Below, piece after piece: positions 7,596-38,948 of a stretch of DNA of 48,173 bases. Position 1 is the first letter of the stretch. The number at the start of each line of letters is the position of its first letter. Source of the stretch: Dehalococcoidia bacterium (GTDB lineage: Bacteria; Chloroflexota; Dehalococcoidia; Tepidiformales; Tepidiformaceae); contig PQAO01000027.1 of assembly GCA_003104995.1 (NCBI GenBank), forward strand, positions 164,799-212,971. The letters are read 5' to 3'. A model generated the notes under the pieces. The model was not told where the DNA came from, searched no databases, and worked only from the letters and a program-made list of their open reading frames with translations. A program made the translations under genes and the position numbers.

Positions 7596-7655
7596 CGGTA
7601 AACCGGGCGCGGCCCGGAGGTCGCGCCCGCGAGTGGTAGATTACAGGCCGTGCAC

Positions 7656-7918
7656 CTGCTGTCGAACTGAGCACCGGGCTTGTCTTACGTCAGCCAGCTC
7701 GGACCCGGTTGACCTGCGGCACCCGAAGCATTCCCCTTATGGCTGCTTCCTTCCGGACCTGACCAGGTTCGAGGCGCCTCGCCGCGCAGGACCAGATCGT
7801 CAACGCCGCTTAACAAGGACAGTCCCCAGCGACCCAGCCCTCGAGCAGGAATTCAACCCCGCTATAGCGGATTGCGGGTTCAGGGCACCGCTAGCTCCCC
7901 GCCTAGCACGGCCAGCAG
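7656..7918 (-). ncRNA. ffs: large bacterial signal recognition particle RNA
   Basis: On the minus strand, 7741-7764 reads as the universal domain IV core (GGTCAGGTCCGGAAGGAAGC followed by AGCC), which binds Ffh. About 130-180 nt upstream is a recognisable Alu domain: GCCGTGCTAGGCGGGGAG, then GCGGTGCCCTG, then CCCGCAATCCGCTATAGCGG. This makes it the long (Bacillus-type) SRP RNA, about 263 nt. The ends were placed by a terminal 6-bp stem (CTGCTG at 7918-7913 with CAGCAG at 7661-7656). No protein gene lies in this 392-bp gap; the open frames in it are incidental. Confidence 0.95.
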
Positions 7919-30171: not shown

Positions 30172-30219
30172 CTGGTACCCCCGGCAGGAATCGAACCTGC
30201 GCACATGGTTTAGGAAGCC
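30172..30219. repeat. distal attachment-site repeat (partial tRNA-Arg)
   Basis: Copy of the 3' end, T-arm and anticodon-loop region of tRNA-Arg(CCU), lacking the 5' half, so not a functional tRNA. It differs from the copy at the intact tRNA at 30184, 30200 and 30217. The first two differences swap a T-stem base pair (G-C for C-G), so pairing is kept. The other 60 bp between the cyclase gene and this repeat show nothing. Confidence 0.9.
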
Positions 30220-30271
30220 TTGGGGCGTCAACGGCGTAGCAACAGGAGTGGCAAGGGGAAGGGTTTAGGCG

Positions 30272-30287
30272 GAATTATCGTGCGCAG
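30272..30287. promoter_or_regulatory. candidate integrase arm-type site, distal arm
   Basis: GAATTATCGTGCGCAG, sharing the TTATCRTGCGC core with two repeats beside the integrase gene (38785-38801 and 38836-38853). Its presence just inside the opposite attachment repeat suggests an integrase or accessory-factor site on the second att arm. Confidence 0.4.
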
Positions 30288-30310
30288 AGAGGGGCGTGAT
30301 CACCGTGCGG

Positions 30311-30763
30311 TCACCCGATGATCCCAAGTTCGACCATTTCCCGGTTGATGGCGAATTCCAGTTCGCCGATTGATTTGGTCAACGCATCCACCTCTTCGGC
30401 CGTGCCTGGGGCAAGACTCCACAATTGAGACCCGAGCGCCCGGTGAGCGTCAATCGCAACCTTGAGTTTGGGATACTCACCTGCCAGCAATGCAGCGCGG
30501 AAAAGTGATCCGCCGTGAATGTCTGAGAAGGTTGCTCCGGTCGGATCTCCTGATATTCCTTGGCGCCGGAGAGCGAGAAGAATGTTGGTAAACCACAGTT
30601 GCCGCTCAACAGCCAGCCTCAACTCCGCGTGGCGCCGGGCCGTTTTTGCTGCCAGCGCCGCCATCCGAGCCTCGGTTCGTTTGCGATGCATTTCCCACTC
30701 GGCGCCAGCTTGGGCAAGCAGGAACCCAACAGCCAATGATGCCCCACTGATCAACCAATCCAC
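30311..30763 (-). CDS. hypothetical membrane-anchored protein, possible element cargo
   Basis: A 150-residue protein with one N-terminal hydrophobic segment (about residues 3-18) followed by a basic then mostly alpha-helical, probably coiled-coil region (MHRKRTEARMAALAAKTARRH at the start). I recognise no family. It lies between a terminator-like hairpin (30835-30862) and the distal attachment repeat. That is the position where satellites and prophages often carry independent accessory genes, so an accessory role (for example superinfection exclusion) is possible but unsupported by a motif. Confidence 0.55.
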   Translation of the reverse strand: MDWLISGASLAVGFLLAQAGAEWEMHRKRTEARMAALAAKTARRHAELRLAVERQLWFTNILLALRRQGISGDPTGATFSDIHGGSLFRAALLAGEYPKLKVAIDAHRALGSQLWSLAPGTAEEVDALTKSIGELEFAINREMVELGIIG

Positions 30764-30834
30764 GGCTGCGAATCCTAGCAGAAAACCCTCGACTCGCTCC
30801 GGGGGCCGTGTGCGTGCGGCACCCGTGACAACGA

Positions 30835-30862
30835 GAAAGGCCCCCGTTTCCGGGAGCCCTTC
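30835..30862 (-). terminator. terminator-like hairpin at end of the element's main transcript
   Basis: On the minus strand a 12-bp stem (with G-U pairs) closed by a GAAA tetraloop is followed by CUCGUUGUC, only moderately U-rich. It begins about 25 bp after the stop codon at 30887, at the end of the long leftward gene series. Confidence 0.55.
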
Positions 30863-30886
30863 GGTGGCGCTCGGTCAGCGCGTGAA

Positions 30887-31066
30887 TCAGGCCGGTGCGG
30901 GTTCCGGCGTGTGTGCCATGTACACCTTCGCGTAGAGGGCCGCCTGTCGCTCATCTTCCCGCTCCGGGTCTTCCTGGGGGCCCGTCAGGGTGAGGCCGCG
31001 TAGCAGTCGCTCAGCGGCCGGATCGTCTGTGACGATCACTTGCCAGCCCTTGCTGGCGCCGAACAT
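30887..31066 (-). CDS. small hypothetical protein of the element
   Basis: About 59 residues, beginning MFGASKGWQVIVTDDPAAE and ending in an Ala/Pro-rich tail. No family recognised. The ATG at 31066 has AAGGG 10 nt upstream; an in-frame TTG at 31075 lies too close to that site. It is followed by the terminator-like hairpin and is 75 bp downstream of the membrane-anchored protein gene. Coding status rests on position, ribosome binding site and lack of a better use for the interval. Confidence 0.45.
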   Translation of the reverse strand: MFGASKGWQVIVTDDPAAERLLRGLTLTGPQEDPEREDERQAALYAKVYMAHTPEPAPA

Positions 31067-31141
31067 GAGCGCCAAACCCTTCGGCGATCGCGTTGGCGAG
31101 GCTGGTGTCGGGGTGAATCAGGGGCGATGGTGGCCATTCGT

Positions 31142-31744
31142 CTAATACCCCTCATCGTCCGAGACGACGCGGAGCACGGCGGAGAGCGCGGTCCCGAACG
31201 GCCGTGGGCCGGCGCCGAGATGGACAACCATGCAGATCCAGTCCACCTGGCCGGGTTCGAGTTCCCGGTCGCCCGCTTGCGCGCCTGGGGCCGGGTCGCC
31301 GAACCCGGGCACACTGCCGATGGCCACTTCTCCGCTGCCCGTGCCGCTCCATCCGGTCGCCACGGGGTCGCAGGTGGTTGCGGATGGCGAGCGGTAGAAC
31401 GTGGCGGTGAGAAGAGAAGCAAGCGCCGGGTCGCCCGTGTACTCGGGGACGCGGAGCGAATAGCGGATGTTCCCGGAGGTCTTCAACGAGGTAATGCTCA
31501 TGACGCAGGTGATGTCGGTGGCGCCCACGTCGCCGGCGCATGAGGACCACGTCGGGTCGGCCCCGCCGGTGGCGCCGTTGTAGAGCGCGACGGCGGCCTC
31601 GGCGTTCTCGGCGTCGACCGTGAACGTACCCGTTGACGAGTTGTAGGTGAACTGGGTCGCGGCATAGACGAGCGCGCCGATGCCGAGGGCGAGGATGACG
31701 GCGAGCCCGATGGTCCAACGGGTCGGGCGGATGGTGAGTGTCAC
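31142..31744 (-). CDS. hypothetical exported or membrane-anchored protein of the element
   Basis: A 200-residue protein with a basic N-terminus and one hydrophobic segment (about 12-29, ending VYAAT), then a Thr/Ser/Gly-rich extracytoplasmic part with four Cys (CAGD, TCVM, TTCD, ICMV) that could form two disulfides, apparently beta-rich. GTG at 31744 has GAGG 8 nt upstream. It superficially recalls small SipW-type surface proteins of Gram-positives; I would not name it. A surface protein is unexpected in a minimal satellite, making it a candidate cargo or virion/adsorption-related gene. Confidence 0.6.
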   Translation of the reverse strand: MTLTIRPTRWTIGLAVILALGIGALVYAATQFTYNSSTGTFTVDAENAEAAVALYNGATGGADPTWSSCAGDVGATDITCVMSITSLKTSGNIRYSLRVPEYTGDPALASLLTATFYRSPSATTCDPVATGWSGTGSGEVAIGSVPGFGDPAPGAQAGDRELEPGQVDWICMVVHLGAGPRPFGTALSAVLRVVSDDEGY

Positions 31745-31803
31745 GATGATTTCCTCTCAGGTTGTGGGGCCGCGTGAATCGTCCAGCGGCCATGGCGACG
31801 CCG

Positions 31804-32034
31804 CTACCAGCCCATGGGCGCCTCCCGCAACAGCGGCCGCACGGTCAGCCCGGGCAGGTTCTCCACGACGAGGAACAGCTCGTTCAACTCCCCCTGGTCG
31901 ATGGCGTCGGTCGCGATGAACCAGCTGTCGCCACAACGGAAGACGACGGGCAGTTGGCCGGTGAGGCGCGTGATGGCGAGCGCCAGGCGGTTGGCGTGGC
32001 ACTCCGAGGGCGTGACGATTTGGGGAACGGGCAA
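31804..32034 (-). CDS. small hypothetical protein of the element
   Basis: About 76 residues with RLTGQLPVVFRCGDSWFIA and a C-terminal part ending REAPMGW. No family recognised. I chose TTG at 32034 because GGAGG lies 8 nt upstream; the frame is open to 32121, but that region forms the inverted-repeat structure described separately. Its translation start sits just downstream of that potential RNA structure. Confidence 0.5.
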   Translation of the reverse strand: MPVPQIVTPSECHANRLALAITRLTGQLPVVFRCGDSWFIATDAIDQGELNELFLVVENLPGLTVRPLLREAPMGW

Positions 32035-32062
32035 GGGCAGAACCTCCGGGAAATGCGAAGGC

Positions 32063-32158
32063 CCCGACGCTGGGTTAGCGGTCGAGGCCAATTCGGAGGT
32101 TCCGCACGGGAGCGGGTACAATCCGGCAAGGTCCTTCGCTGCTTATCCCAGCGTCGGG
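32063..32158 (-). other. 12-bp inverted repeat enclosing a potentially structured 72-nt leader
   Basis: CCCGACGCTGGG (32063-32074) and its exact complement CCCAGCGTCGGG (32147-32158) flank 72 nt. On the minus-strand transcript the closed region contains further small hairpins (for example CCGC-UCCCGU-GCGG) and ends about 29 nt before the TTG start of the 76-residue protein. It lies in a 148-bp gap between two element genes. It could be a cis-regulatory RNA, a packaging/cos-like site or a small RNA; sequence alone does not decide. Confidence 0.5.
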
Positions 32159-32182
32159 CTTAGCGGGCCGTCGGTACTGATA

Positions 32183-32452
32183 CTACCGGCGGTCCGCGCC
32201 TTCGGAGCGAACCATACCATCGCTGTCAAGGTCGATTACGGGTGTAGGCGGGTGCTCAATTTCGGGGGCCGGCACCTTGAAGTCCCCGAGGCCTGCGGCG
32301 ATCAATTCCGGGTCGTCACCGAAGGCGAACACCTCCGGCGGCAGACCCAGGACGGCCACGGCGGCCCCGGTGACGCGCCCGTGCACCCAGCGGAGCAGAA
32401 CGGCGCGTCCATCGGGGAGGATGCGGGTTGTGTACGTCGCGTAGCTATCCAT
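32183..32452 (-). CDS. small hypothetical protein of the element
   Basis: An 89-residue protein, MDSYATYTTRILPDGRAVLL at its start, with an acidic, proline-rich C-terminal half. No family recognised. The ATG at 32452 has AGGGA about 6 nt upstream. It follows the capsid gene after 113 bp containing two hairpins and precedes the structured leader at 32063-32158. Position next to the capsid gene would fit a head-decoration or head-completion role, but nothing in the sequence shows it. Confidence 0.55.
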   Translation of the reverse strand: MDSYATYTTRILPDGRAVLLRWVHGRVTGAAVAVLGLPPEVFAFGDDPELIAAGLGDFKVPAPEIEHPPTPVIDLDSDGMVRSEGADRR

Positions 32453-32480
32453 CGGGGTCCCTGCGTTCGTTTGTCGGTCG

Positions 32481-32557
32481 CCGGGAGGGCAATCGGAAAC
32501 CTCTCCCGGCAGCCTCGGGTGCCGTCGCGTTTGGGAGGCCTTCCCCGCGACGGCACC
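32481..32557 (-). other. two tandem hairpins after the capsid gene
   Basis: A perfect 12-bp stem (32518-32529 with 32546-32557, 16-nt loop) and a 7-bp stem (32481-32487 with 32503-32509) lie between the capsid stop and the next ribosome binding site. No U-run follows either, so they are more likely mRNA-stabilising or processing structures than intrinsic terminators, for instance raising capsid expression. Confidence 0.45.
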
Positions 32558-32565
32558 TTCTCGAT

Positions 32566-33858
32566 TTACGCCCTTGCGGCTAACGTGACGAACGCCGAGA
32601 GCGTGTCACCGTTCTTCGGAGTGTCAGCGGAAGCGTCGATCGGCATCCCGTCGAGTCGCGAGACGATGCGGAAGAAGGTCTCGTCGGTGTCGAACAGGGC
32701 GTGTTCGCTCTTCGCGAAGTCCGCATCCTGGCGAAGCCCGATCACGTACTGGTTGAAGTCGGCCAGGAGAATGTCGCCGAGGTCGCCCACCGGCTGCAGC
32801 TTCTCCGTGAAGATCACGGGCCGCTGCAGGATTTCGAACTGCCCCGCGTTCTTGGTCAGGACAGGGATATGGCTGCCGGCAGTGCCGATCGGGATGCTCA
32901 GGGTAAGGAGCTGCGGCATCGCGGTCTGGGAGACTACCCACGTCGCGTTGGCGTAGTTTCGGTGTCGCGCCGCCATCTTGGCGAGGTTCTCGAAAATGAC
33001 CGTGTCCGCCGCTTGGCCGGATTCCTTGTCGACCGTAATGAGGCTCGCCGAGTTGAACACGCCGAGCGGCTTGCCGGCGCCGTCGCCGTTCAGGAACGCA
33101 TCGTCAAGGCCCCAGGACATCGAAACCGACATGCCTTCACGGAGCTGATCTTCGAACCCGACGCCATCGGCGACCATCTCGTTGGAGGCCGGGCAGTAGA
33201 TTGCGCATTTTTTGGCGTTCAGACCGATCGCGGCGAGCGAGGGCTTCTGCTTCGCGCCGGTAGCGGTCTCGGCCATCCAGCGGATCGAGAAGCCGAACGG
33301 GGCGCCGCCGCTGCGGTCGTACTTGTCCCAGATCGGGGCCTCAATTTTGTCGCTCCGCATCGGCACGATGCGCGCACGGGGCCGCACGATCTCGGACTCG
33401 AGGCTCAGGTCGAGCAGCTCCGCGTAGAACTGCGTGGGCACCATGAAACCACCTTCGCTCGGCACCCCAATGTTGCCACCGTCCGCCGCGAAGAGTCGCG
33501 GGTCGGCCAGGCGATTCGACGCGGCCTGTACAAACTCACCCAGCGACTCCCAGCCGCGCGCGTCGTGGGCGGCTGCGGGGAACATCTGGGCGAAGCGCGG
33601 GCCGGTGAAGACTCCGCGCCCACCGGAGGCTTCCGGGTTGCCTTCGTCCCACGCCCGGCCGGCGGCATCGCGCTCGGCGTCGAGCTGGTGCAGGCGGGCG
33701 TCGATCGCATTCTTGCGGAAGGTGATCGCGTCGAGGCTGCGCAACTCCTGGGCGGTCAGGTCGCGCTGTTTCTCGGCATCGGCGGCGGCGAAGATGGCGT
33801 CGGCCTGGCGTTCGAGCCGCTGCCTTTCGGAATGGAGTTTTCGGCGTTCGGGGATCAT
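32566..33858 (-). CDS. HK97-family major capsid protein
   Basis: A 430-residue phage head protein. The N-terminal ~75 residues are highly charged and helical (RRKLHSERQRLERQADAIF), like the delta/scaffolding domain of HK97 capsid proteins. The body has the family pattern PSEGGFMVPTQF, the E-loop/spine region, LDDAFLNGDGAGKPLGVFN, then LADFNQYVIGLRQD and the C-terminal A-domain. I chose ATG at 33858 (GGAG 10 nt upstream). No prohead protease gene is nearby, although HK97-type delta domains are normally removed by one; a helper phage could supply it. The gene is intact. Confidence 0.9.
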   Translation of the reverse strand: MIPERRKLHSERQRLERQADAIFAAADAEKQRDLTAQELRSLDAITFRKNAIDARLHQLDAERDAAGRAWDEGNPEASGGRGVFTGPRFAQMFPAAAHDARGWESLGEFVQAASNRLADPRLFAADGGNIGVPSEGGFMVPTQFYAELLDLSLESEIVRPRARIVPMRSDKIEAPIWDKYDRSGGAPFGFSIRWMAETATGAKQKPSLAAIGLNAKKCAIYCPASNEMVADGVGFEDQLREGMSVSMSWGLDDAFLNGDGAGKPLGVFNSASLITVDKESGQAADTVIFENLAKMAARHRNYANATWVVSQTAMPQLLTLSIPIGTAGSHIPVLTKNAGQFEILQRPVIFTEKLQPVGDLGDILLADFNQYVIGLRQDADFAKSEHALFDTDETFFRIVSRLDGMPIDASADTPKNGDTLSAFVTLAARA

Positions 33859-33886
33859 GGGGGCTTTGCTCCGCTGGTGATAACCC

Positions 33887-34225
33887 TCACGCTGCGCCAG
33901 GCGGATTCGGCACGGAAGGTGCCACATTTCGTGCCAAGCGCCGCCGACGGCGATGACGCTCCCGGGCGCGCTTCAGATCGCGCGCATTGGCCACGTCAAG
34001 GTCCGCCGCGTAGAACGCGGCCCATAGTTCGAGGGGCATGGATTCGGCAGTAAGCAGGTCGTCCTCGTCCACACCAGCAAGGGGCCCGCCCGCGTCGCGC
34101 GCTCGCGCTTCCGCCCTCATCCATGCCTCTCTCAGTGGTCGCCACGGGCGCCCCTCGGCGCGCCAAGCGAGAAAGAAGTCCGCGAGCTCATCTTCCAGAG
34201 CGGCGAGCTCGCCTTCGGCCATCAT
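33887..34225 (-). CDS. small hypothetical protein between terminase small subunit and capsid
   Basis: A 112-residue protein: an acidic, helical N-terminal half (MMAEGELAALEDELADFFLA) followed by a basic tail RARERHRRRRRLAR. Its ATG overlaps the preceding stop as ATGA at 34222-34225, indicating coupled translation, and it ends 28 bp before the capsid start. Family not recognised. Acidic-then-basic small proteins at this position in phage head operons may be head-morphogenesis or scaffold helpers; that is inference only. Confidence 0.65.
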   Translation of the reverse strand: MMAEGELAALEDELADFFLAWRAEGRPWRPLREAWMRAEARARDAGGPLAGVDEDDLLTAESMPLELWAAFYAADLDVANARDLKRARERHRRRRRLARNVAPSVPNPPGAA

Positions 34226-34536
34226 GAGGTTTCCCCGGGTGGGCCTCCGCGCGCCGAGCGGCGGCGCAGCGACTCGGCCCACAACTCCGCGAGCTGCAGC
34301 AGCGCATCCGGCGCCTTGAGGTCGACGGCCAGCAACGCCAGCTCGCCCGCCTGGCCATAGACCGCCTGCAGGTCGCCGGGCGCGGCCTTGGCCTCGGCAC
34401 GGATGGCCGCCTGCAGCTCCACTTCGGCCCGTTCGGGCACATCCAGGCGCCAGGCGCGCGCCGCGTCGATGCGGGCGAGCAGAGAATCGCGGGCGGCCGT
34501 GTCCGGTTCGTGGTGGCTGTTCTTTCGAGCTCTCAT
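34222..34536 (-). CDS. small alpha-helical hypothetical protein of the head module
   Basis: A 104-residue protein, basic at its start (MRARKNSHHEPDT), then rich in Ala/Leu/Glu with predicted helices. No family recognised. ATG at 34536 overlaps the terminase small-subunit stop (ATGA) and has GGAGG 9 nt upstream, so it can be translated by coupling or on its own. Its stop overlaps the next start. It belongs to the same tightly packed series as the small terminase subunit and capsid genes. Confidence 0.65.
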   Translation of the reverse strand: MRARKNSHHEPDTAARDSLLARIDAARAWRLDVPERAEVELQAAIRAEAKAAPGDLQAVYGQAGELALLAVDLKAPDALLQLAELWAESLRRRSARGGPPGETS

Positions 34537-34892
34537 GCGCTTTTTCCTCCAATCGCGTACACCCCACGCGCCGCGCCGCGCCGTTGCGGTCGCTTACCCG
34601 GGTCCGCCAGGTCCTCGGGCAGCCGGAGCGAAGCGAGCAAGCGCGAGAAGGCGACACGTTGTTGCCGCACTTCGACCAGCAACGGCGACGGGCGGCCGTC
34701 CGGCAGCACCATCCCGTGAACGGCGAGTTCCGCCGCCAGATCGTCGAGCAGATCGGCGGCGCGACACGCTTCGTGCAACAGGAAGCGCTCGTGCAGGTCA
34801 AGGTCGAGCGGCCCCAGGACCGCCCGCCAGAGTGCCCGGCCGCGGCCGTTTCGCTTCAGCCCGGACGGCGCCGGCGGAATCTTCTCAGTCAT
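34533..34892 (-). CDS. P27-like phage terminase small subunit
   Basis: A 119-residue protein with the P27-type pattern: PAPSGLKRNGRGRALWRAVL at the N-terminus, then LDLDLHERFLLHEACRAADLLDDL in two stretches, GMVLPDGRPSPLLVEVRQQR, and FSRLLASLRLPED. Small terminase subunits recognise the packaging site and recruit the large subunit, which is not encoded here. PICI satellites often carry their own small subunit to redirect a helper's packaging machinery, consistent with this element. ATG at 34892 is preceded by GGAGG at 8 nt; the stop overlaps the next ATG. Confidence 0.75.
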   Translation of the reverse strand: MTEKIPPAPSGLKRNGRGRALWRAVLGPLDLDLHERFLLHEACRAADLLDDLAAELAVHGMVLPDGRPSPLLVEVRQQRVAFSRLLASLRLPEDLADPGKRPQRRGAARGVYAIGGKSA

Positions 34893-34995
34893 CAGGGACA
34901 CCTCCGTTCGTTTCAGGGGTCACGTACCGCGAGAACTGGGCGCCCTCTAGGCGGATGTCACGACGTTTCCAAGAATCCAAAGGGAGGGGAGTCAT
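34885..34995 (-). CDS. 36-residue small protein coupled to the terminase small subunit
   Basis: A short frame beginning MTPLPLDSWKRRDIRLEG and ending VPDD. Its ATG overlaps the preceding stop (ATGA at 34992-34995) with a strong GGGAGGG 5 nt upstream, and its last codons overlap the start of the small terminase subunit gene by 8 bp. It fills exactly the only gap in a chain of overlapping genes, which is the main evidence that it is translated. Function unknown; it may also simply couple translation. Confidence 0.6.
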   Translation of the reverse strand: MTPLPLDSWKRRDIRLEGAQFSRYVTPETNGGVPDD

Positions 34996-35276
34996 GCGGG
35001 CCCTCCCTTTCGCTCCATTTGCAGGGGCTTGCCGGCGCCCCAGGTCAACAGCGCGACATCAACGCCCGTCGCAAGGTTGCGATACAGAACCACGACGCCC
35101 GCGGGGTCCTGAGTGGTGATGGTCACGATCTCGGCCTTCTTCGACTCCAGGCCGTGCCAGATGGCGCGCTGCTTCTCCGTGCTCAGGCGTTGGATGGCGT
35201 GGTTGATGATGCTGGCCACATGCTCGCAGTGCGCGGGCATGAAGGCATCTTCCCAGCTGGGTTCGGGCGTGGTCAT
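34992..35276 (-). CDS. hypothetical protein of the element
   Basis: A 94-residue protein, MTTPEPSWEDAFMPAHCEHV at its start, with a helical central part (IINHAIQRLSTEKQRAIWHG) and a C-terminal segment VVLYRNLATGVDVALLTWG. No family recognised. ATG at 35276 has GGAGG 5 nt upstream and overlaps the previous stop as ATGA; the stop overlaps the 36-residue gene start. The GGGAGGG near its end is also the ribosome binding site of that next gene and one arm of a 10-bp inverted repeat (34979-34988 with 35001-35010). Confidence 0.65.
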   Translation of the reverse strand: MTTPEPSWEDAFMPAHCEHVASIINHAIQRLSTEKQRAIWHGLESKKAEIVTITTQDPAGVVVLYRNLATGVDVALLTWGAGKPLQMERKGGPA

Positions 35277-35749
35277 TGGTTCCTCCGTTGGCCCCGGCGA
35301 ACGCCGGCGGCGGTCCCGCAGGACATCGGCCCGCACAACATCGGCCCGACCAACACTCGCCCGCCCAAAACCTGAATGTCCTCGGCGTTGGCTGCCCCGA
35401 CGGCCAGGAGGAATACCTGGCCGGGCCCGGGCGTCTTCCCACCGCTGGCACCACCGGCGGCCACCCGGGAACGGGCTTCGCGCCATGCAGCCACCATTAC
35501 CGGGTGTCGCTCGTCGAGCTCGTCGGCAGGCATGCGCTTGGTATCGATGGCAAGCCCGAAGATCAGGTCCAGGTCGGCCCTGGTGGCGTCCGGGACCTCG
35601 AGGAAACTCCCACCGCATGTGTGCTGCCCGAGGGCGTCGATAACTTCCGAGACGATGGCGAACTGGCGATCGTCCAGCGCCTCGAACGCGACGATCAGGC
35701 TATGTTTGGTGTTCCGGGACACGGGGTCGGGTTCTTGATGGTTAGACAC
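35273..35749 (-). CDS. hypothetical protein of the element
   Basis: A 158-residue protein. The first ~90 residues (KHSLIVAFEALDDRQFAIVS and on) look globular and acidic-helical; the last ~50 are Gly/Ala rich. No family recognised. I chose GTG at 35749 because GGAGG lies 7 nt upstream; the frame is open further upstream over the zinc-ribbon gene only. It overlaps that gene by 8 bp and overlaps the next start as ATGA. Confidence 0.6.
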   Translation of the reverse strand: MSNHQEPDPVSRNTKHSLIVAFEALDDRQFAIVSEVIDALGQHTCGGSFLEVPDATRADLDLIFGLAIDTKRMPADELDERHPVMVAAWREARSRVAAGGASGGKTPGPGQVFLLAVGAANAEDIQVLGGRVLVGPMLCGPMSCGTAAGVRRGQRRNQ

Positions 35750-36038
35750 GTGCTTTCCTCCGTTGGCGCACCTGGCGCCGCACTTGTTCGGCCCGGAGTT
35801 CGGCTTCGAGCTTCGGACTGAGGGGCGTGGCGACGGAACCGCAGTGCAGGCAGTGCAGGCCGTCGTCCTCGATGAAGATGCTCCCGCCGCGGCACCGTGG
35901 GCAGATGAGGCGGTGCCGGGCCAGATGCCGGGATTTGGTGAGTGCGACAACCTGATCGCACTTCGCACAGCGGGCGAACATCGCGCCTTCGCAGCGGTCC
36001 TCAGGGAAGGGCCAGTAGCCGGATCCGGGGCAGATCAT
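35742..36038 (-). CDS. zinc-ribbon protein of the element
   Basis: A 98-residue protein with Cys pairs CAKC (about residue 24), CPRC (about 47) and CLHC (about 63), enough for one or two zinc knuckles, followed by a basic C-terminus RQVRQRRKARV. Such proteins bind nucleic acid or act as adaptors. Its ATG shares a base with the stop of the replication gene (TAATG), so it is translationally coupled to it and may assist replication or transcription of the element. The specific role is unknown. Confidence 0.65.
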   Translation of the reverse strand: MICPGSGYWPFPEDRCEGAMFARCAKCDQVVALTKSRHLARHRLICPRCRGGSIFIEDDGLHCLHCGSVATPLSPKLEAELRAEQVRRQVRQRRKARV

Positions 36039-36796
36039 TAGTCCGACCCCCCGAGAGCGACGGCGCGAGAGGGCGAAGGAGAAGTCACTTGGTCTTTGAA
36101 GTCGCGGCCGAATGCGTCAAGGATTTCGTGAGGCCAGGCCCTGAGGAAAAACGGCTCCCCCATGAGAGCTTTCCGCTTCTCACGGATGGCCGCGATCGAG
36201 TAGTTCTTCGCGAGGATCTCAGCCGGCTGTTCGTTGTCAGGCCTCGTCCTGAGTCCTGGCGGGAGCCAGGAAAGAATTTCCTCGAAGGCAGGAAACCAGT
36301 CGGCGCACAAGATCTCCGGCGAATAGCCGGAGAGATCATGATCATGATCTCTCTCTTCTTCGATAGAAGAAGACTCTCCTATCTCTCCTGTTGTGCCGCA
36401 GATTTGCGGCTTCCCACGCCGCATATTTGCGGCGTCTGGGCCGCAGTTTTGCGGCTTCCTCGCATCCGAGGAGACCGCAGATTTGCGGCTTCCTCCGGGC
36501 GGAACAGGCCGCAGATTTGCGGCTTCCTCCGTGGGTTCGAGGAGCTGGTAACGGTTGAATGAGCCCGCCTTGCTAATGACGACGAGCCCGGATTTGGCGA
36601 GCTCCCTCAGCCCCCGATCGACGCTATCGATGCTGGAGCGGGAGAGCGCCGCCAGCTCGGCCCGGGATGGGTGATAGGGCGTCCTGCGGGCGACGTGCCG
36701 TTGGAGGATGCCGTACAGCCGGACGGCGTTTCCGCTTACGTCGGCGTATAGCACGGCCTCGGGGATCTGCGCGAAGCGGCGGCCGTCATCTTTCAT
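36038..36796 (-). CDS. winged-helix replication initiator-like protein with internal origin
   Basis: A 252-residue protein. Residues about 5-85 form a winged helix (NAVRLYGILQRHVAR, PSRAELAALSRSSIDSVDRG, LAKSGLVVISKAG), typical of phage O-like/Rep-like initiators. Residues about 90-160 are a low-complexity linker, repetitive because the DNA beneath consists of five palindromic iterons and two palindromes. Residues 165-252 form a second small domain (FEEILSWLPPGL, SIAAIREKRKALMGEPFF). The arrangement matches lambda O protein, whose gene contains the lambda origin in the linker-coding part. ATG at 36796 overlaps the stop of a 17-residue leader frame. Confidence 0.75.
   Translation of the reverse strand: MKDDGRRFAQIPEAVLYADVSGNAVRLYGILQRHVARRTPYHPSRAELAALSRSSIDSVDRGLRELAKSGLVVISKAGSFNRYQLLEPTEEAANLRPVPPGGSRKSAVSSDARKPQNCGPDAANMRRGKPQICGTTGEIGESSSIEEERDHDHDLSGYSPEILCADWFPAFEEILSWLPPGLRTRPDNEQPAEILAKNYSIAAIREKRKALMGEPFFLRAWPHEILDAFGRDFKDQVTSPSPSRAVALGGSD
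36314..36527. repeat. putative replication origin: five palindromic iterons plus two palindromes
   Basis: Five 20-bp copies of GCCGCAGATTTGCGGCTTCC begin at 36395, 36418, 36440, 36474 and 36508; copies 1 and 5 are identical and the others have 1-3 changes. Each contains CCGCA-n4-TGCGG, so each is itself a dyad. Start spacings of 23, 22, 34 and 34 bp approximate whole helical turns. Next to them lie a perfect 8-4-8 inverted repeat (36354-36373), a perfect 24-bp palindrome (36330-36353) and a 7-bp-stem hairpin (36314-36332), in an AT-richer stretch. The layout is that of lambdoid origins. Confidence 0.75.
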
Positions 36797-36846
36797 GGCG
36801 CGCCCGCCGGGCCTATTTGGGGTGGTGCTACGATCTGGATGAACAC
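36793..36846 (-). CDS. 17-residue leader peptide before the replication gene
   Basis: A GTG-started frame encoding MFIQIVAPPQIGPAGAP, with GGAGG 10 nt upstream and a stop overlapping the replication-gene ATG (ATGA at 36793-36796). The replication ATG has no ribosome binding site of its own within 15 nt, so re-initiation from this leader is the probable route of its translation. It may set initiator level; no peptide function is implied. Confidence 0.5.
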   Translation of the reverse strand: MFIQIVAPPQIGPAGAP

Positions 36847-36886
36847 TCGGTTTTTTCCTCCACGTGTGTTCGTAGAATCTGGGTTT

Positions 36887-36924
36887 GCACGAAACCGCCC
36901 CATCCTTCGAGGGCGGTTTCGTGC
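36887..36924. other. perfect 14-bp-stem hairpin in the element
   Basis: GCACGAAACCGCCC (36887-36900) pairs completely with 36911-36924 around a 10-nt loop. On the plus strand GTTTTC follows; on the minus strand AAACCC follows. It lies between the stop of a small gene (36929) and the leader of the replication gene. It could be a weak terminator separating integrase and replication transcription units, or a protein-binding site. Confidence 0.5.
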
Positions 36925-36928
36925 GTTT

Positions 36929-37195
36929 TCAGGCGTTGGGTGTGGGCATGGTCCGGCGGCGGCGCGCCTGGACGCTGGCGAGGGCAAGGCGGGCCATATG
37001 CGCCCGCTTCAGGGCATCGGCGCGCCGGGCACGCTCCGCCGGGTCAAGGACACCATCGGGATCGGCTTCGCGCTCGAATCGAGCCAGGAAGCCGGCGCGT
37101 GCGTGCGCCGTCAGCTCGTCAGGAGAGTGACGCGCAGCCTTTGAGAGACCGCCGATGCGGCCAGCGAGGACCTTCGTGGGATTCTTTGTAGACAA
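36929..37195 (-). CDS. small hypothetical phage-type protein
   Basis: About 88 residues: VLAGRIGGLSKAARHSPDEL near the start, then FLARFEREADPDGVLDPAERARRADALKRA and a basic C-terminus. The GGLSKAAR..ARAGFLARFE pattern recurs in small phage proteins of high-GC bacteria, but I know no function. The start is uncertain: TTG at 37195 gives MSTKNPTKV, and a GTG at 37237 is also open; neither has a good ribosome binding site. Confidence 0.5.
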   Translation of the reverse strand: MSTKNPTKVLAGRIGGLSKAARHSPDELTAHARAGFLARFEREADPDGVLDPAERARRADALKRAHMARLALASVQARRRRTMPTPNA

Positions 37196-37333
37196 GAACG
37201 CCGGGCATACCTTTCCCCGCGAATCGCCTTGTCCCACTCAGAGAAAGCAACCCGGATGGGGCGTGTGCCCGGCCGTTTGGGGCCGTGTGAAGCCACCGCC
37301 GCTAATTTCGTCTTAGATTCGCGTGTAGGGTAG

Positions 37334-37780
37334 CTACAGCGTTTCCAGCATGTCACGCTCCGCTGCGGTCAGCAACTCTTGCACCAGAAGGCAGCGTGGG
37401 CACTCAACGCGCGGGGGTGCCTTCATACCTCGTTCCACATCGATCGGGGCGGGACTCCGCCACGGCGCGGCCATCTGGTTGCCGTGTTTCAACAGGTGAC
37501 GGGCGCTCCGCACGGTCTCCGGGGGTCCAACTGGCTGTCCCTTCCGCGCCCGCCGCTTACCTTCCGCAGTCGCGTGGTAAGTGGCGTCTTCGCCGAGCGC
37601 GAACCCTCGCGCCAGGTAGATGGCACCAATCAGATGATCGTCCGGCCCGCCGAACCAAAAGGTACCCACGGCCTGCGAGCAGAGGCGGCCGGTTGGGTAC
37701 TGGCGAGAGCAGAGAATCTTCGCGCTCATCGGGTAGCCACTCGGGTACAGCATCCATCGCCGCTCGGGTTCGAGCCTCAC
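37334..37780 (-). CDS. hypothetical cysteine-containing protein coupled to the integrase
   Basis: A 148-residue protein with single N-terminal Cys residues (KILCSRQYPTGRLCSQ) and a C-terminal CPRC pair, so zinc binding is possible. GTG at 37780 overlaps the integrase stop (GTGA at 37777-37780), indicating co-translation; an internal ATG at 37729 lacks a ribosome binding site. Its position directly after the integrase would suit an excision or regulatory helper, but it does not resemble known excisionases. Confidence 0.55.
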   Translation of the reverse strand: MRLEPERRWMLYPSGYPMSAKILCSRQYPTGRLCSQAVGTFWFGGPDDHLIGAIYLARGFALGEDATYHATAEGKRRARKGQPVGPPETVRSARHLLKHGNQMAAPWRSPAPIDVERGMKAPPRVECPRCLLVQELLTAAERDMLETL

Positions 37781-38721
37781 AGCCGCATCCTCGGCGAAAA
37801 CTCATCGTGCGCTTCCGCGGCCCGCTCAGCGGCCACCGAGGCCCCGTAGCGGTCGACCATACTCCGCGACTTCCAGCCCGTGACCTTCATGAGATTCCCT
37901 TCGTTGCCGCCAGCCCGCAAGTACTGATGCGCGAAGGTGTGCCGGAGTTGGTGCGGGTGGATGTGCTCGACTCCGGCCTGGTCCGCGCGCCGGGCCACCA
38001 TCCGGTAGATGCCGCTCCCCGTCATGGCGCCGGACCGTCCGATCCAGAGCTGTGGCGCGTCGTGGTGGGCGTGAGCGGCCCGTTTTCGCAAGTACCGCAT
38101 GAGGTCCGTCCGGGTGGGTTTCGTGAACCGCAGAACACGCTCACGGCGTCCCTTGCCCATTACGCGGACCTCCCGTTCCTCGATGTCGAGGTCCGCGAGC
38201 CGCAAGCCCGCCATCTCCGCGATGCGCAGGCCCACATCGATGAACAGCGAAAGGATGGCCTTGTCGCGGCGGTCCTCAAACTCTGTCCCGGCGACCGTCC
38301 TGAACAGGCGCCGGAGCGAGTCATCATCCACGACGGGCACCAGCTTCTCGGGCACCTGTGGCGGCGTCATCTTCGCCATGGGCGACTCCGCGATCTCGTC
38401 TTCCTTCACGAGCCACGCGAAGAAGCGCGAGACGCTCCGATATCGCTGGAGCGCCGTCTGTGCGGTCAGCCCTTGCCCGCCTTCGTCTCCCGGCCGCTGC
38501 ATGTGGCGCATCCACTCGCCGAGGTGCTCCCGGGTGACGATGGTGGGGTCGGTGGGCATCCCCCTCGATGCCAGGAACGCGCCGAGCTGTGTCACGGCCA
38601 CGCCGTAGGTGGTCCTGGTCATGGGAGCCCGGTTTACTTCCTCAAGCCAATCCTGAAAGCCGATCTCGTACTCGTGCCAGATGGGCGGAGCGGCCGCCCG
38701 GGTCGTAAGATCGGTGGGCAT
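37777..38721 (-). CDS. int: tyrosine recombinase/integrase of the element
   Basis: A 314-residue site-specific recombinase. The N-terminal SAM-like core-binding domain (about 20-115) is followed by the catalytic domain with all conserved residues visible: Arg166 in GLRIAEMAGLR, Lys190 in MGKGRRE, His257 and Arg260 in HPHQLRHTFA, Trp283 in TGWKS and nucleophile Tyr292 in VDRYG. ATG at 38721 has GGAGG 7 nt upstream. It lies 152 bp from the tRNA-Arg gene used as its target, the standard position for element integrases. Confidence 0.92.
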   Translation of the reverse strand: MPTDLTTRAAAPPIWHEYEIGFQDWLEEVNRAPMTRTTYGVAVTQLGAFLASRGMPTDPTIVTREHLGEWMRHMQRPGDEGGQGLTAQTALQRYRSVSRFFAWLVKEDEIAESPMAKMTPPQVPEKLVPVVDDDSLRRLFRTVAGTEFEDRRDKAILSLFIDVGLRIAEMAGLRLADLDIEEREVRVMGKGRRERVLRFTKPTRTDLMRYLRKRAAHAHHDAPQLWIGRSGAMTGSGIYRMVARRADQAGVEHIHPHQLRHTFAHQYLRAGGNEGNLMKVTGWKSRSMVDRYGASVAAERAAEAHDEFSPRMRL

Positions 38722-38784
38722 CGGGTTACCTCCGGTGTCATGCGGCAGGGTGTTTCGCGCACCGCTGCCGCCTTTGTTACCGGG

Positions 38785-38853
38785 GAAGTTATCATGCGCT
38801 GTAGCGGCGAAGCAAGAGGCGACTTTTGGGAGAGCGAAGTTATCGTGCCGCTG
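38785..38853. repeat. direct repeats between integrase and tRNA, candidate arm-type sites
   Basis: GAAGTTATCATGCGCTG (38785-38801) and GAAGTTATCGTGCCGCTG (38836-38853), 51 bp apart, lie in the attachment-site region. A third, diverged copy is at 30272-30287 beyond the other attachment repeat. The arrangement fits arm-binding sites of a tyrosine integrase. Confidence 0.45.
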
Positions 38854-38872
38854 CAGATTCAAACTGGCTAGG

Positions 38873-38920
38873 CTGGTACCCCCGCCAGGAATCGAACCTG
38901 GGCACATGGTTTAGGAAACC
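38873..38920. repeat. proximal attachment-site repeat at tRNA-Arg
   Basis: The copy of the 48-bp repeat that forms the 3' CCA end, T-arm and anticodon loop of the intact tRNA-Arg(CCU). This part of the tRNA would have been supplied by the element on integration; its T-stem pair differs from the displaced copy at 30172-30219. Strand exchange probably occurs in the shared anticodon-loop segment. Confidence 0.88.
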
Positions 38921-38948
38921 ACTGCTCTATCCGCTGAGCTACGGGGGC
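38874..38948 (-). tRNA. tRNA-Arg (anticodon CCU)
   Basis: Complete cloverleaf on the minus strand: acceptor GCCCCCG pairs with CGGGGGT (first pair G-U), the D-stem is GCTC/GAGC, the anticodon stem GTGGT/ACCAT carries loop TTCCTAA (anticodon CCU, codon AGG), the T-stem is CCAGG/CCTGG, and CCA is encoded at 38876-38874. The integrated element lies directly 3' of it; the gene stays functional because the element restores the 3' half. Confidence 0.96.

What the first reader, a model, noticed from the sequence alone, without database searches (positions are those of the whole stretch)
30172..38920. Compact 8.7-kb PICI-like phage satellite in a presumed Chloroflexota genome
The element has a complete integration module (tRNA target, flanking repeats, integrase), a self-contained replication gene with internal origin, a small terminase subunit and an HK97-type capsid. 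I find no large terminase, portal, protease, tail or lysis genes. Carrying its own small terminase subunit and replicon but depending on a helper for the rest is the defining pattern of phage-inducible chromosomal islands. The chained ATGA/GTGA overlaps and undamaged genes argue against decay from a full prophage. Encoding a capsid makes it closer to capsid-forming satellites, yet it lacks their portal and protease. I know of no described satellite of this gene content in this phylum.
Basis: partly seen in the sequence, partly recalled or inferred. Interest (0 to 1): 0.88.

Follow-up and report, generated by a model that had tools for sequence, protein, structure and literature searches.

The report
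Nine-kilobase phage satellite with own capsid
A self-contained 8.7-kb DNA element sits in a tRNA gene of a Chloroflexota-type genome and codes for its own integrase, a predicted replication starter, a predicted DNA-selecting packaging protein and its own phage shell protein but no detectable packaging motor, portal or tail; it is therefore likely a phage parasite that would borrow those parts from a helper virus, and its shell protein belongs to a lineage shared with similar-sized elements in genome bins assigned to about ten bacterial phyla.

Summary
An 8,701-bp insert (30172-38872) with 48-nt direct repeats sits at the 3' end of tRNA-Arg(CCT); in a same-genus genome the left flank runs straight into an intact tRNA. 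It encodes a tyrosine integrase, an initiator-like protein with five iterons, TerS and an HK97-fold capsid protein. No large terminase, portal, protease, tail or lysis gene was recognised, nor a helper TerL or portal in the host draft genome with three families tried.

The main new result comes from relatives. The capsid protein falls in a group (support 100/99) of 38 satellite-like rows plus 6 unlabelled, apart from all 43 phage-side rows. These elements lie in bins of about ten phyla; 17 of 18 repeat-bounded ones are 8.6-9.9 kb; 18 of 29 have a TerS nearby; five of 31 carry a short tail tape-measure protein. This argues against a decayed prophage.

The kind is not new: mycobacterial candidate PICIs/phiRv, cf-PICIs and SaPIbov5 (Ccm) are precedents. 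This is a distinct, apparently undescribed cross-phylum variant. Whether the protein builds a whole small shell (preferred) or redirects the helper's is untested; helper dependence, induction and transfer are inferred.

The parts
30172..38872 (.). whole integrated element, 8,701 bp
   Evidence: direct repeats; element-free junctions in congeners G004 and G003
30172..30219 (-). distal att copy (3' tRNA fragment)
   Evidence: 48-nt repeat, 94% identical to the tRNA copy; 47 of 48 nt identical to the tRNA-Arg of congener G003, the window's tRNA copy 46 of 48
38874..38948 (-). tRNA-Arg(CCT), integration target, left intact
   Evidence: ARAGORN, Rfam RF00005
37777..38721 (-). tyrosine integrase, 314 aa
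   Evidence: PF00589 2.9e-27, phrog_1 1.9e-37
37334..37780 (-). unknown, 148 aa; overlaps the integrase stop by 4 nt
   Evidence: sequence; no PHROG, NCBIfam or PADLOC match
36929..37237 (-). doubtful small ORF
   Evidence: listed ORF; only weak PHROG matches, E 0.04 and 0.12
36038..36796 (-). predicted replication initiator, 252 aa, HTH N-terminus
   Evidence: phrog_270 7.5e-07; HTH_36 0.004, below cut-off; no NCBIfam match
36396..36523 (.). five iterons CCGCANNTTTGCGGC inside rep; predicted origin
   Evidence: five exact copies
35742..36038 (-). 98-aa protein with weak zinc-ribbon similarity
   Evidence: Zn_ribbon_8 E 0.005, below Pfam cut-off
35273..35749 (-). unknown, 158 aa
   Evidence: no match in PHROGs, Pfam, NCBIfam or PADLOC
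34992..35276 (-). unknown, 94 aa; 4-nt overlap with the preceding gene; weak match to an ORF right after terS in L122
34533..34892 (-). small terminase subunit, 119 aa
   Evidence: phrog_1496 1.6e-14 (on the 122-aa form); 31% to the TerS of satellite L088; cluster of 18 loci plus window; no Pfam or NCBIfam match
34222..34536 (-). unknown, 104 aa, between terS and capsid gene
   Evidence: no family above cut-off
33887..34225 (-). unknown, 112 aa, between terS and capsid gene
   Evidence: no family above cut-off
32566..33858 (-). HK97-fold major capsid protein with predicted N-terminal delta domain, 430 aa
   Evidence: PF05065 2.6e-37, TIGR01554 1.7e-46, model pLDDT 80, Foldseek to HK97-fold capsids
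32183..32452 (-). unknown, 89 aa
   Evidence: no PHROG match; no NCBIfam match above cut-off
31804..32121 (-). unknown, 105 aa
   Evidence: third-position GC 0.89; no PHROG match
31142..31744 (-). 200-aa protein with an N-terminal hydrophobic segment, possibly secreted; possible cargo
   Evidence: sequence; no family above cut-off
30887..31075 (-). doubtful small ORF
   Evidence: no PHROG or PADLOC match
30311..30763 (-). 150-aa protein with an N-terminal hydrophobic segment; possible cargo
   Evidence: sequence; no match

Best explanation
This is an integrated 8.7-kb element that encodes its own integrase, a predicted replication initiator with iterons, a predicted small terminase subunit and a capsid protein, and it likely works as a phage satellite that would make a small shell of its own, mark its own DNA for packaging, and take the packaging motor, portal, protease, tail and lysis functions from a helper phage. 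Shown by calls: the insert and its ends; the gene content; the absence of detectable TerL, portal, protease and tail genes; the capsid group and the common size of relatives. Inferred: on helper infection or induction the integrase excises the element at the tRNA; Rep acts at the iterons to amplify it; TerS directs the helper TerL to satellite DNA; the satellite capsid protein co-assembles with the helper portal, and its delta domain is removed by the helper or a host protease; the small head, holding one 9-kb genome (or two in a T=4 head), joins helper tails. In some relatives a short tape-measure protein would also set tail length.
For: Insert and element-free junctions. Gene families. Capsid tree: 38 satellite/CF rows (window included) plus 6 of 7 unlabelled on one side at 100/99, all 43 phage-side rows on the other; same split in two other row sets. 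Sizes: 17 of 18 repeat-bounded elements, window included, are 8.6-9.9 kb, outlier 6.6 kb. A TerS ORF near the capsid gene in 18 of 29 satellite loci examined, in 17 of them starting 0.6-1.9 kb upstream, 1.0 kb in the window; 6 of the 18 were checked against PHROGs and all matched TerS families. Two of the three closest TerS clusters (82%, 79%) report the same longest-contig lengths (16,743 and 4,702) as the capsid relatives of 66% and 74% (fragment), as if on the same contigs. Tape-measure proteins in 5 of 31 satellite loci. Circular or terminally redundant contigs: L027, 8,499 bp, and TerS relative L191, 8,887 bp. A published size model puts about 9 kb in a sub-T=4 head (PMC7762592, section 5 part 1).
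Against: No helper, induction, particle or transfer was observed. The host draft genome (90.95% complete) has no PF03354, PF03237 or PF04860 match; that search is not exhaustive, since PF04860 also missed the genome of L117, whose locus was labelled phage. About 9 kb is also the published mean for PICIs (9.5 kb), so size alone does not prove an own small shell. Ccm, the closest characterised analogue by gene content, does not form shells alone. The N-terminal stretch before the core is no shorter than in phage relatives (median 149 against 152 residues on uncorrected starts), so no trace of a size switch was seen there. Some TerS relatives differ: L189 carries its own head maturation protease, and L190 and L191 carry more distant capsid lineages.
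Confidence: 0.68

Rival explanations
1. Satellite whose capsid protein is a size-redirecting subunit: like SaPIbov5 Ccm it would occupy only part of a helper-made shell, and the helper capsid protein would do the rest.
For: Ccm is an HK97-fold capsid homologue with a delta domain in a satellite without an identified protease; it sits in pentamers and shifts the helper to T=4 (PMC8569155, passages). The window has the same gene economy: no protease or portal recognised.
Against: Ccm-type use ties the protein to a helper capsid protein of similar kind; here the lineage is coherent across bins of about ten phyla, and seven relatives carry a gene at or just after the capsid gene, one of them (L100) in a cluster of 31 loci that includes phages; that it is a decoration protein is my guess from its place. 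Indirect.
Confidence: 0.2
2. Remnant of a full prophage that lost most genes.
For: Capsid and TerS are phage-type proteins.
Against: Integrase, TerS and capsid cover nearly the whole family profiles; clean ends and element-free junctions in congeners; capsid inside a satellite group and not among phages; narrow common size in unrelated hosts. Repeated decay would not give the same size and order.
Confidence: 0.05
3. Small self-sufficient virus or domesticated compartment or transfer element that needs no helper phage.
For: Own shell and predicted replication genes; best structural and profile matches are gene-transfer-agent capsids (6tb9, 6tba).
Against: No motor, portal, tail or lysis gene recognised; I know of no independent use of TerS without TerL (recalled); mobile-element ends.
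Confidence: 0.04

Closest known systems
Candidate PICIs of Mycobacterium, including phiRv1/phiRv2 (PMC10654092, passages and section 9)
   Same: Islands defined there as integration machinery plus major capsid gene; tyrosine integrases use tRNA genes; some also carry replication and terminase genes; mobilisation not yet shown there either
   Different: Capsid profile A2 finds 28 of 118 genomes of the genus of L110, all weak (best 1e-20) except the seed genome's own capsid (3.7e-106), which lies on the phage side of the tree; so a different capsid lineage as far as sampled. That phiRv1/2 carry a protease next to the capsid gene is recalled, from no call.
Capsid-forming PICIs (cf-PICI)
   Same: Satellite encodes its own capsid; structure 9gyi (EcCI2) is among the Foldseek matches
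   Different: cf-PICIs also encode protease, portal, connectors and both terminase subunits (PMC10690885, passages) and average 14 kb (PMC10803314, passages); here TerL, portal and protease were not found and the size is 8.7 kb
SaPIbov5 and Ccm (PMC8569155, passages)
   Same: Satellite-encoded HK97-fold capsid homologue without an identified satellite protease
   Different: Ccm forms pentamers only in a hybrid T=4 shell of a cos-type SaPI; here an own TerS is present and the shell role is untested
Classical PICIs / SaPIs with own TerS
   Same: Integrase, own replication, in some SaPIs own TerS redirecting packaging; mean 9.5 kb
   Different: A complete capsid gene is not part of the pattern; no AlpA/Stl-type regulator recognised here
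MulchRoom and MiniFlayer (Streptomyces satellites; PMC10690885, passages)
   Same: Satellite-encoded capsid
   Different: Encode TerL, portal and scaffold and lack genes with homology to known primases
Tycheposons, VEIMEs, PICMIs, Charybdis elements
   Same: Small mobile elements tied or possibly tied to phage particles
   Different: PICMI has no capsid-remodelling or identifiable packaging genes (PMC10803314, passages); Charybdis elements are about 4.6 kb without hallmark proteins (PMC12324425, abstract); the primary tycheposon and VEIME papers were not held, so their gene content was not compared

Membership tests
PICI (classical) | Integrase and att sites at a specific site | tested here: met
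PICI (classical) | Own replication module with origin | tested here: inconclusive
   weak Rep family match, strong iterons
PICI (classical) | Own TerS or other packaging redirector | tested here: met
PICI (classical) | AlpA/Stl-type regulation | tested here: inconclusive
   none recognised (PHROGs on 16 of 16 ORFs; Pfam and NCBIfam on 10 of 16 each), but unknown small ORFs remain and a phrog_16198 repressor match falls on Rep (8e-06)
PICI (classical) | No complete structural capsid gene (recalled as part of the classical pattern) | tested here: not met
   full-length MCP present
PICI (classical) | Induced and packaged by a helper phage | not testable with these tools
   needs culture or reads
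cf-PICI | Own major capsid protein | tested here: met
cf-PICI | Own portal, protease, connectors, TerL | tested here: not met
   no family match; unknown ORFs too short for TerL or portal, a divergent small protease not excluded
Integrase-plus-capsid candidate PICI (Mycobacterium sense) | Integrase and major capsid gene in one island | tested here: met
Integrase-plus-capsid candidate PICI (Mycobacterium sense) | Capsid of the same lineage as phiRv-like elements | tested here: inconclusive
Full prophage | Portal, TerL, tail and lysis genes | tested here: not met
Cross-phylum 9-kb capsid group described here | MCP inside the satellite group | tested here: met
   100/99;
Cross-phylum 9-kb capsid group described here | att-bounded length about 8.6-9.9 kb, no TerL or portal | tested here: met

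The most novel reading that the evidence does not exclude
The element belongs to a single-origin, cross-phylum lineage of about 9-kb satellites that carry the 'ruler' parts of a virion, namely the shell protein, the DNA-choosing TerS and in several members a short tail tape-measure, and borrow every generic machine (motor, portal, protease, tail tube, lysis) from whatever phage infects. They would build the puzzlingly rare sub-T=4 tailed-phage heads.
Probability: 0.42. Interest if true: 0.85.

Novelty: new variant of a known kind. Interest (0 to 1): 0.64.

Why it matters
It points to a satellite strategy between TerS-only PICIs and fully capsid-forming PICIs, in genome bins of about ten phyla. 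A narrow 9-kb size with an own shell protein makes a testable prediction of very small tailed-phage heads, whose rarity a published modelling paper calls puzzling (PMC7762592, abstract and section 5 part 1). Tape-measure genes in some relatives would mean that satellites also set tail length; the paper searches (listings) showed no such case, and in the one listed satellite paper opened for it the tape-measure gene belongs to the helper (PMC4936722, passages).

Tried and rejected
Single-protein scans with the window capsid found no relative in viral contigs or genome contigs; an alignment was needed. Search of 148 kin genomes gave 6 with a match, own included, the others distant (25-32%). A 400-genome phylum sample gave 14 genomes with a match, own included; the two strongest others (G232, G511) have capsids closest to phage rows, the rest are weak. 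Plasmid hit H31 proved to be a full phage region. PADLOC matched none of 10 small ORFs. A decayed prophage and an incomplete assembly of a longer phage were rejected on the junctions and the tree.

Rows left out of counts: L001 and L002 (the window itself) and L003-L007, L132, L133 from the first tree; 42 near-duplicate or similar rows (36 phage, 5 unlabelled, 1 satellite); five long-branch rows, including the archaeal MAG L127. Thirteen loci were left unlabelled; 11 fell on the satellite side. The satellite label was set by me before the tree: integrase, TerS, DnaB/primase or tape-measure near the capsid gene and none of portal, TerL, protease, connector; several rest on the integrase alone, and short contigs can lose phage genes off their ends. 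Repeat spacings of unlabelled loci were not counted: L020 9,665, L021 7,548, L023 and L101 7,510, L104 6,198, L095 13,115. L092, L093 and L102 have short repeats (19-21 nt); without them 14 of 15 lengths are 8.5-9.9 kb. Sixty ORFs of relatives were chosen for PHROG scans; the others were not scanned.


Full report
Observation. The window's 8.7-kb island is real. ARAGORN places tRNA-Arg(CCT) at 38874-38948 on the minus strand. A 48-nt direct repeat, 94% identical, lies at 30172-30219 and 38873-38920, spacing 8,701 bp. In the same-genus genome G004 the left flank runs straight into an intact tRNA-Arg(CCT): one 1,574-nt HSP at 80% identity crosses the junction of the joined window flanks and ends 82 nt past it, with the tRNA. 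Beyond the tRNA G004 does not match the window. In G003 the tRNA and right flank match over 201 nt at 88%, and left of the tRNA nothing matches. So each junction is seen without the element, in two different congeners, and no single genome shows both flanks. The distal repeat is 47 of 48 nt identical to the G003 tRNA, the tRNA copy 46 of 48. The host looks like Chloroflexota/Dehalococcoidia: the named best homologues of a flanking permease are Dehalococcoidia and Chloroflexi.

Gene content. All 16 ORFs considered run on the minus strand, from the integrase on: tyrosine integrase (PF00589 2.9e-27), a predicted replication initiator (phrog_270 7.5e-07; weaker evidence), a 98-aa protein with weak zinc-ribbon similarity, two unknowns, TerS (phrog_1496 1.6e-14), two unknowns, the HK97-type capsid protein (PF05065 2.6e-37; TIGR01554 1.7e-46), and small unknown genes. 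Five exact iterons CCGCANNTTTGCGG lie inside rep and no exact copy lies elsewhere in the window. No TerL, portal, protease, tail or lysis family matched any of the 16 ORFs in PHROGs at E<=1; Pfam and NCBIfam, each on 10 of the 16, agree. The largest ORF without a family assignment has 200 aa, which speaks against a TerL or portal but does not exclude a small protease. PADLOC matched none of 10 small ORFs.

Host and helper. The host draft genome (90.95% complete, 39 contigs) has no match to PF03354, PF03237 or PF04860. Other families were not tried, and PF04860 is known to miss portals here: it found none in the genome of L117, whose locus was labelled phage.

Relatives by capsid. The protein database gave 303 proteins (window included); the best others are 66%, 58% and a 74% fragment, then 46% and less among the 120 listed. 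An alignment of 44 rows (A1) found 79 viral-contig loci (the best 80 of 409 kept) and 47 genome loci. ORF clustering and profiles built from these loci split them into loci with portal, TerL, protease or connector genes (labelled phage), loci with integrase, DnaB/primase, TerS or tape-measure genes and none of those (labelled satellite, 31), eight loci with TerL-capsid-portal order (called CF here), and 13 unlabelled in the tree.

Size. A bracketing exact repeat was found in 17 of the 31 satellite-labelled loci; with the window, 17 of 18 lengths lie between 8.6 and 9.9 kb and one is 6.6 kb. In 12 of the 17 the repeat overlaps a tRNA called by ARAGORN. Of the 72 phage-labelled loci two (L057, L118) had a repeat of 18 nt, none longer, though the stretches held were at most about 21 kb and could not bracket a long prophage. 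One CF element, L014, is bounded at 10,050 bp. L027 (8,499 bp), L020 (9,665 bp, unlabelled) and L191 (8,887 bp) look circular or terminally redundant. A size near 9 kb is also the mean of PICIs (9.5 kb), so it is not specific.

Tree. In the careful tree (88 rows, 362 columns; bootstrap not fully settled) 38 satellite and CF rows, window included, plus 6 unlabelled stand on one side of a branch at 100/99; the 43 phage-side rows (36 phage loci, 6 outgroup records, 1 distant kin capsid) and one unlabelled row stand on the other. The same split came from 125 rows without outgroups (72 phage and 2 unlabelled against 32 satellite, 8 CF and 11 unlabelled) and from 93 rows with ten outgroup rows (31 satellite, 8 CF and 7 unlabelled at 98). 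Outgroups came from phage and plasmid records and two kin loci. The window pairs with L122, a Rhodospirillales bin, and its highest identity is 50%, to L087. By record titles and NCBI ranks the satellite members fall in Acidobacteriota, Thermodesulfobacteriota, Actinomycetota, Myxococcota (titled Deltaproteobacteria), Pseudomonadota, Chloroflexota, Planctomycetota, Krumholzibacteriota, Ignavibacteriota and Bacillota; an archaeal bin (L127) has too long a branch to trust. All 20 satellite-labelled genome loci are metagenome-assembled, so single host assignments may be wrong. Rows were gathered by similarity to the window capsid, so other capsid lineages are under-sampled.

Shared and variable parts. 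A TerS ORF of one loose cluster (phmmer E<=0.01, single linkage) lies near the capsid gene in 18 of 29 satellite loci examined and in the window; in 17 of the 18 it starts 0.6-1.9 kb upstream, in L124 it is downstream. Six of the 18 were scanned and matched TerS families, two with E near 5e-05 only. A gene at or shortly after the capsid gene is shared by 7 loci. Tape-measure proteins of 520-674 aa occur in L008, L009, L010, L027 and L103 (best phrog match 7e-110), with a weak sixth in L100. PHROG scans of 50 selected ORFs from these loci listed no TerL, portal or protease. Of 26 genomes around these loci (three of them of phage-labelled loci), 19 have no PF04860 match; 7 of 9 have no PF03237 match (one of the nine of a phage-side locus).

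Relatives by TerS. TerS searching (42 loci) tells the other side. Four of the closest contigs (L189, L190, L191, L193; TerS 48-61%; contigs of 8.3-10.4 kb) also carry a capsid gene; the ORFs scanned are serine integrases in L189, L191 and L193 and primases in L189 and L193, but the capsids of L190 and L191 are of more distant lineages, that of L193 is a weak match, and L189 has its own head maturation protease. None of the 13 best-ranked loci shows a TerL by the profiles used, while 19 of the 42, all further down, have one directly downstream of TerS as in phages. So satellites of this size draw on more than one capsid lineage, and the protease is sometimes kept.

Mechanism. Preferred: the satellite builds its own small shell and directs DNA into it, using helper motor, portal, protease and tails. 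For: a full-length capsid protein with a predicted delta domain, own TerS, a narrow genome size, a separate capsid lineage. A published scaling model gives 8.94 kb for T about 2.49, 11.8 kb for T=3 and 18 kb for T=4 with wide intervals (PMC7762592, section 5 part 1), so 9 kb fits one genome in a very small head or two in a T=4 head. The best structural and profile match is a gene-transfer-agent capsid (6tb9/6tba); that this capsid is unusually small is recalled. A comparison of N-terminal lengths gave nothing (149 against 152 residues). Main rival: Ccm of SaPIbov5, a capsid homologue that enters only pentamers and cannot form shells alone (PMC8569155, passages). The data here do not separate these two.

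Known systems. Mycobacterium candidate PICIs (PMC10654092, passages and section 9) are the nearest described kind. cf-PICIs and the Streptomyces satellites carry more packaging genes (PMC10690885, passages). Mean sizes of PICI and cf-PICI are from PMC10803314 (passages). A review (PMC11389934, passages) names three capsid clades in cf-PICIs. PMC10872708 and PMC11481560 (passages) and PMC12324425 (abstract) gave no matching element. The primary cf-PICI, tycheposon, VEIME and SatelliteFinder papers were not held, so a prior description there cannot be excluded. Nine paper searches (listings and starts of abstracts, apart from the papers named here) showed no cross-phylum 9-kb TerS-plus-capsid family.

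Noticed in passing
L020, L023, L094, L095, L099, L101, L104, L132: Several contigs of one Acetivibrio mesophilus draft genome, and matching viral contigs, each hold a copy or piece of a capsid gene of the satellite group, some with long direct repeats at 6.2-9.7 kb spacing: possibly a multi-copy element in one genome.
   Followed up: no
L012-L016, L019, L022, L026: Loci with the order TerL-capsid-portal form a nested subgroup (100) of the satellite capsid group; L014 is bounded at 10,050 bp. They look like a minimal capsid-forming variant.
   Followed up: partly
L103:11041-13065, L008:4425-6056, L010:2842-4755, L027:3029-4591, L009:2661-4409: Short tail tape-measure proteins inside satellite-labelled loci; no other tail gene was recognised among the ORFs scanned there.
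   Followed up: partly
L191:1-9014: Circular-looking contig of 8,887 bp with serine integrase, TerS like the window's and a different capsid lineage.
   Followed up: partly
L127:4774-6192: Distant capsid of this group in a Methanosuratincola (archaeal) bin; long branch, may be a binning error.
   Followed up: no
window 7648-7911 (-): Bacterial large SRP RNA gene (RF01854, 204 bits).
   Followed up: no
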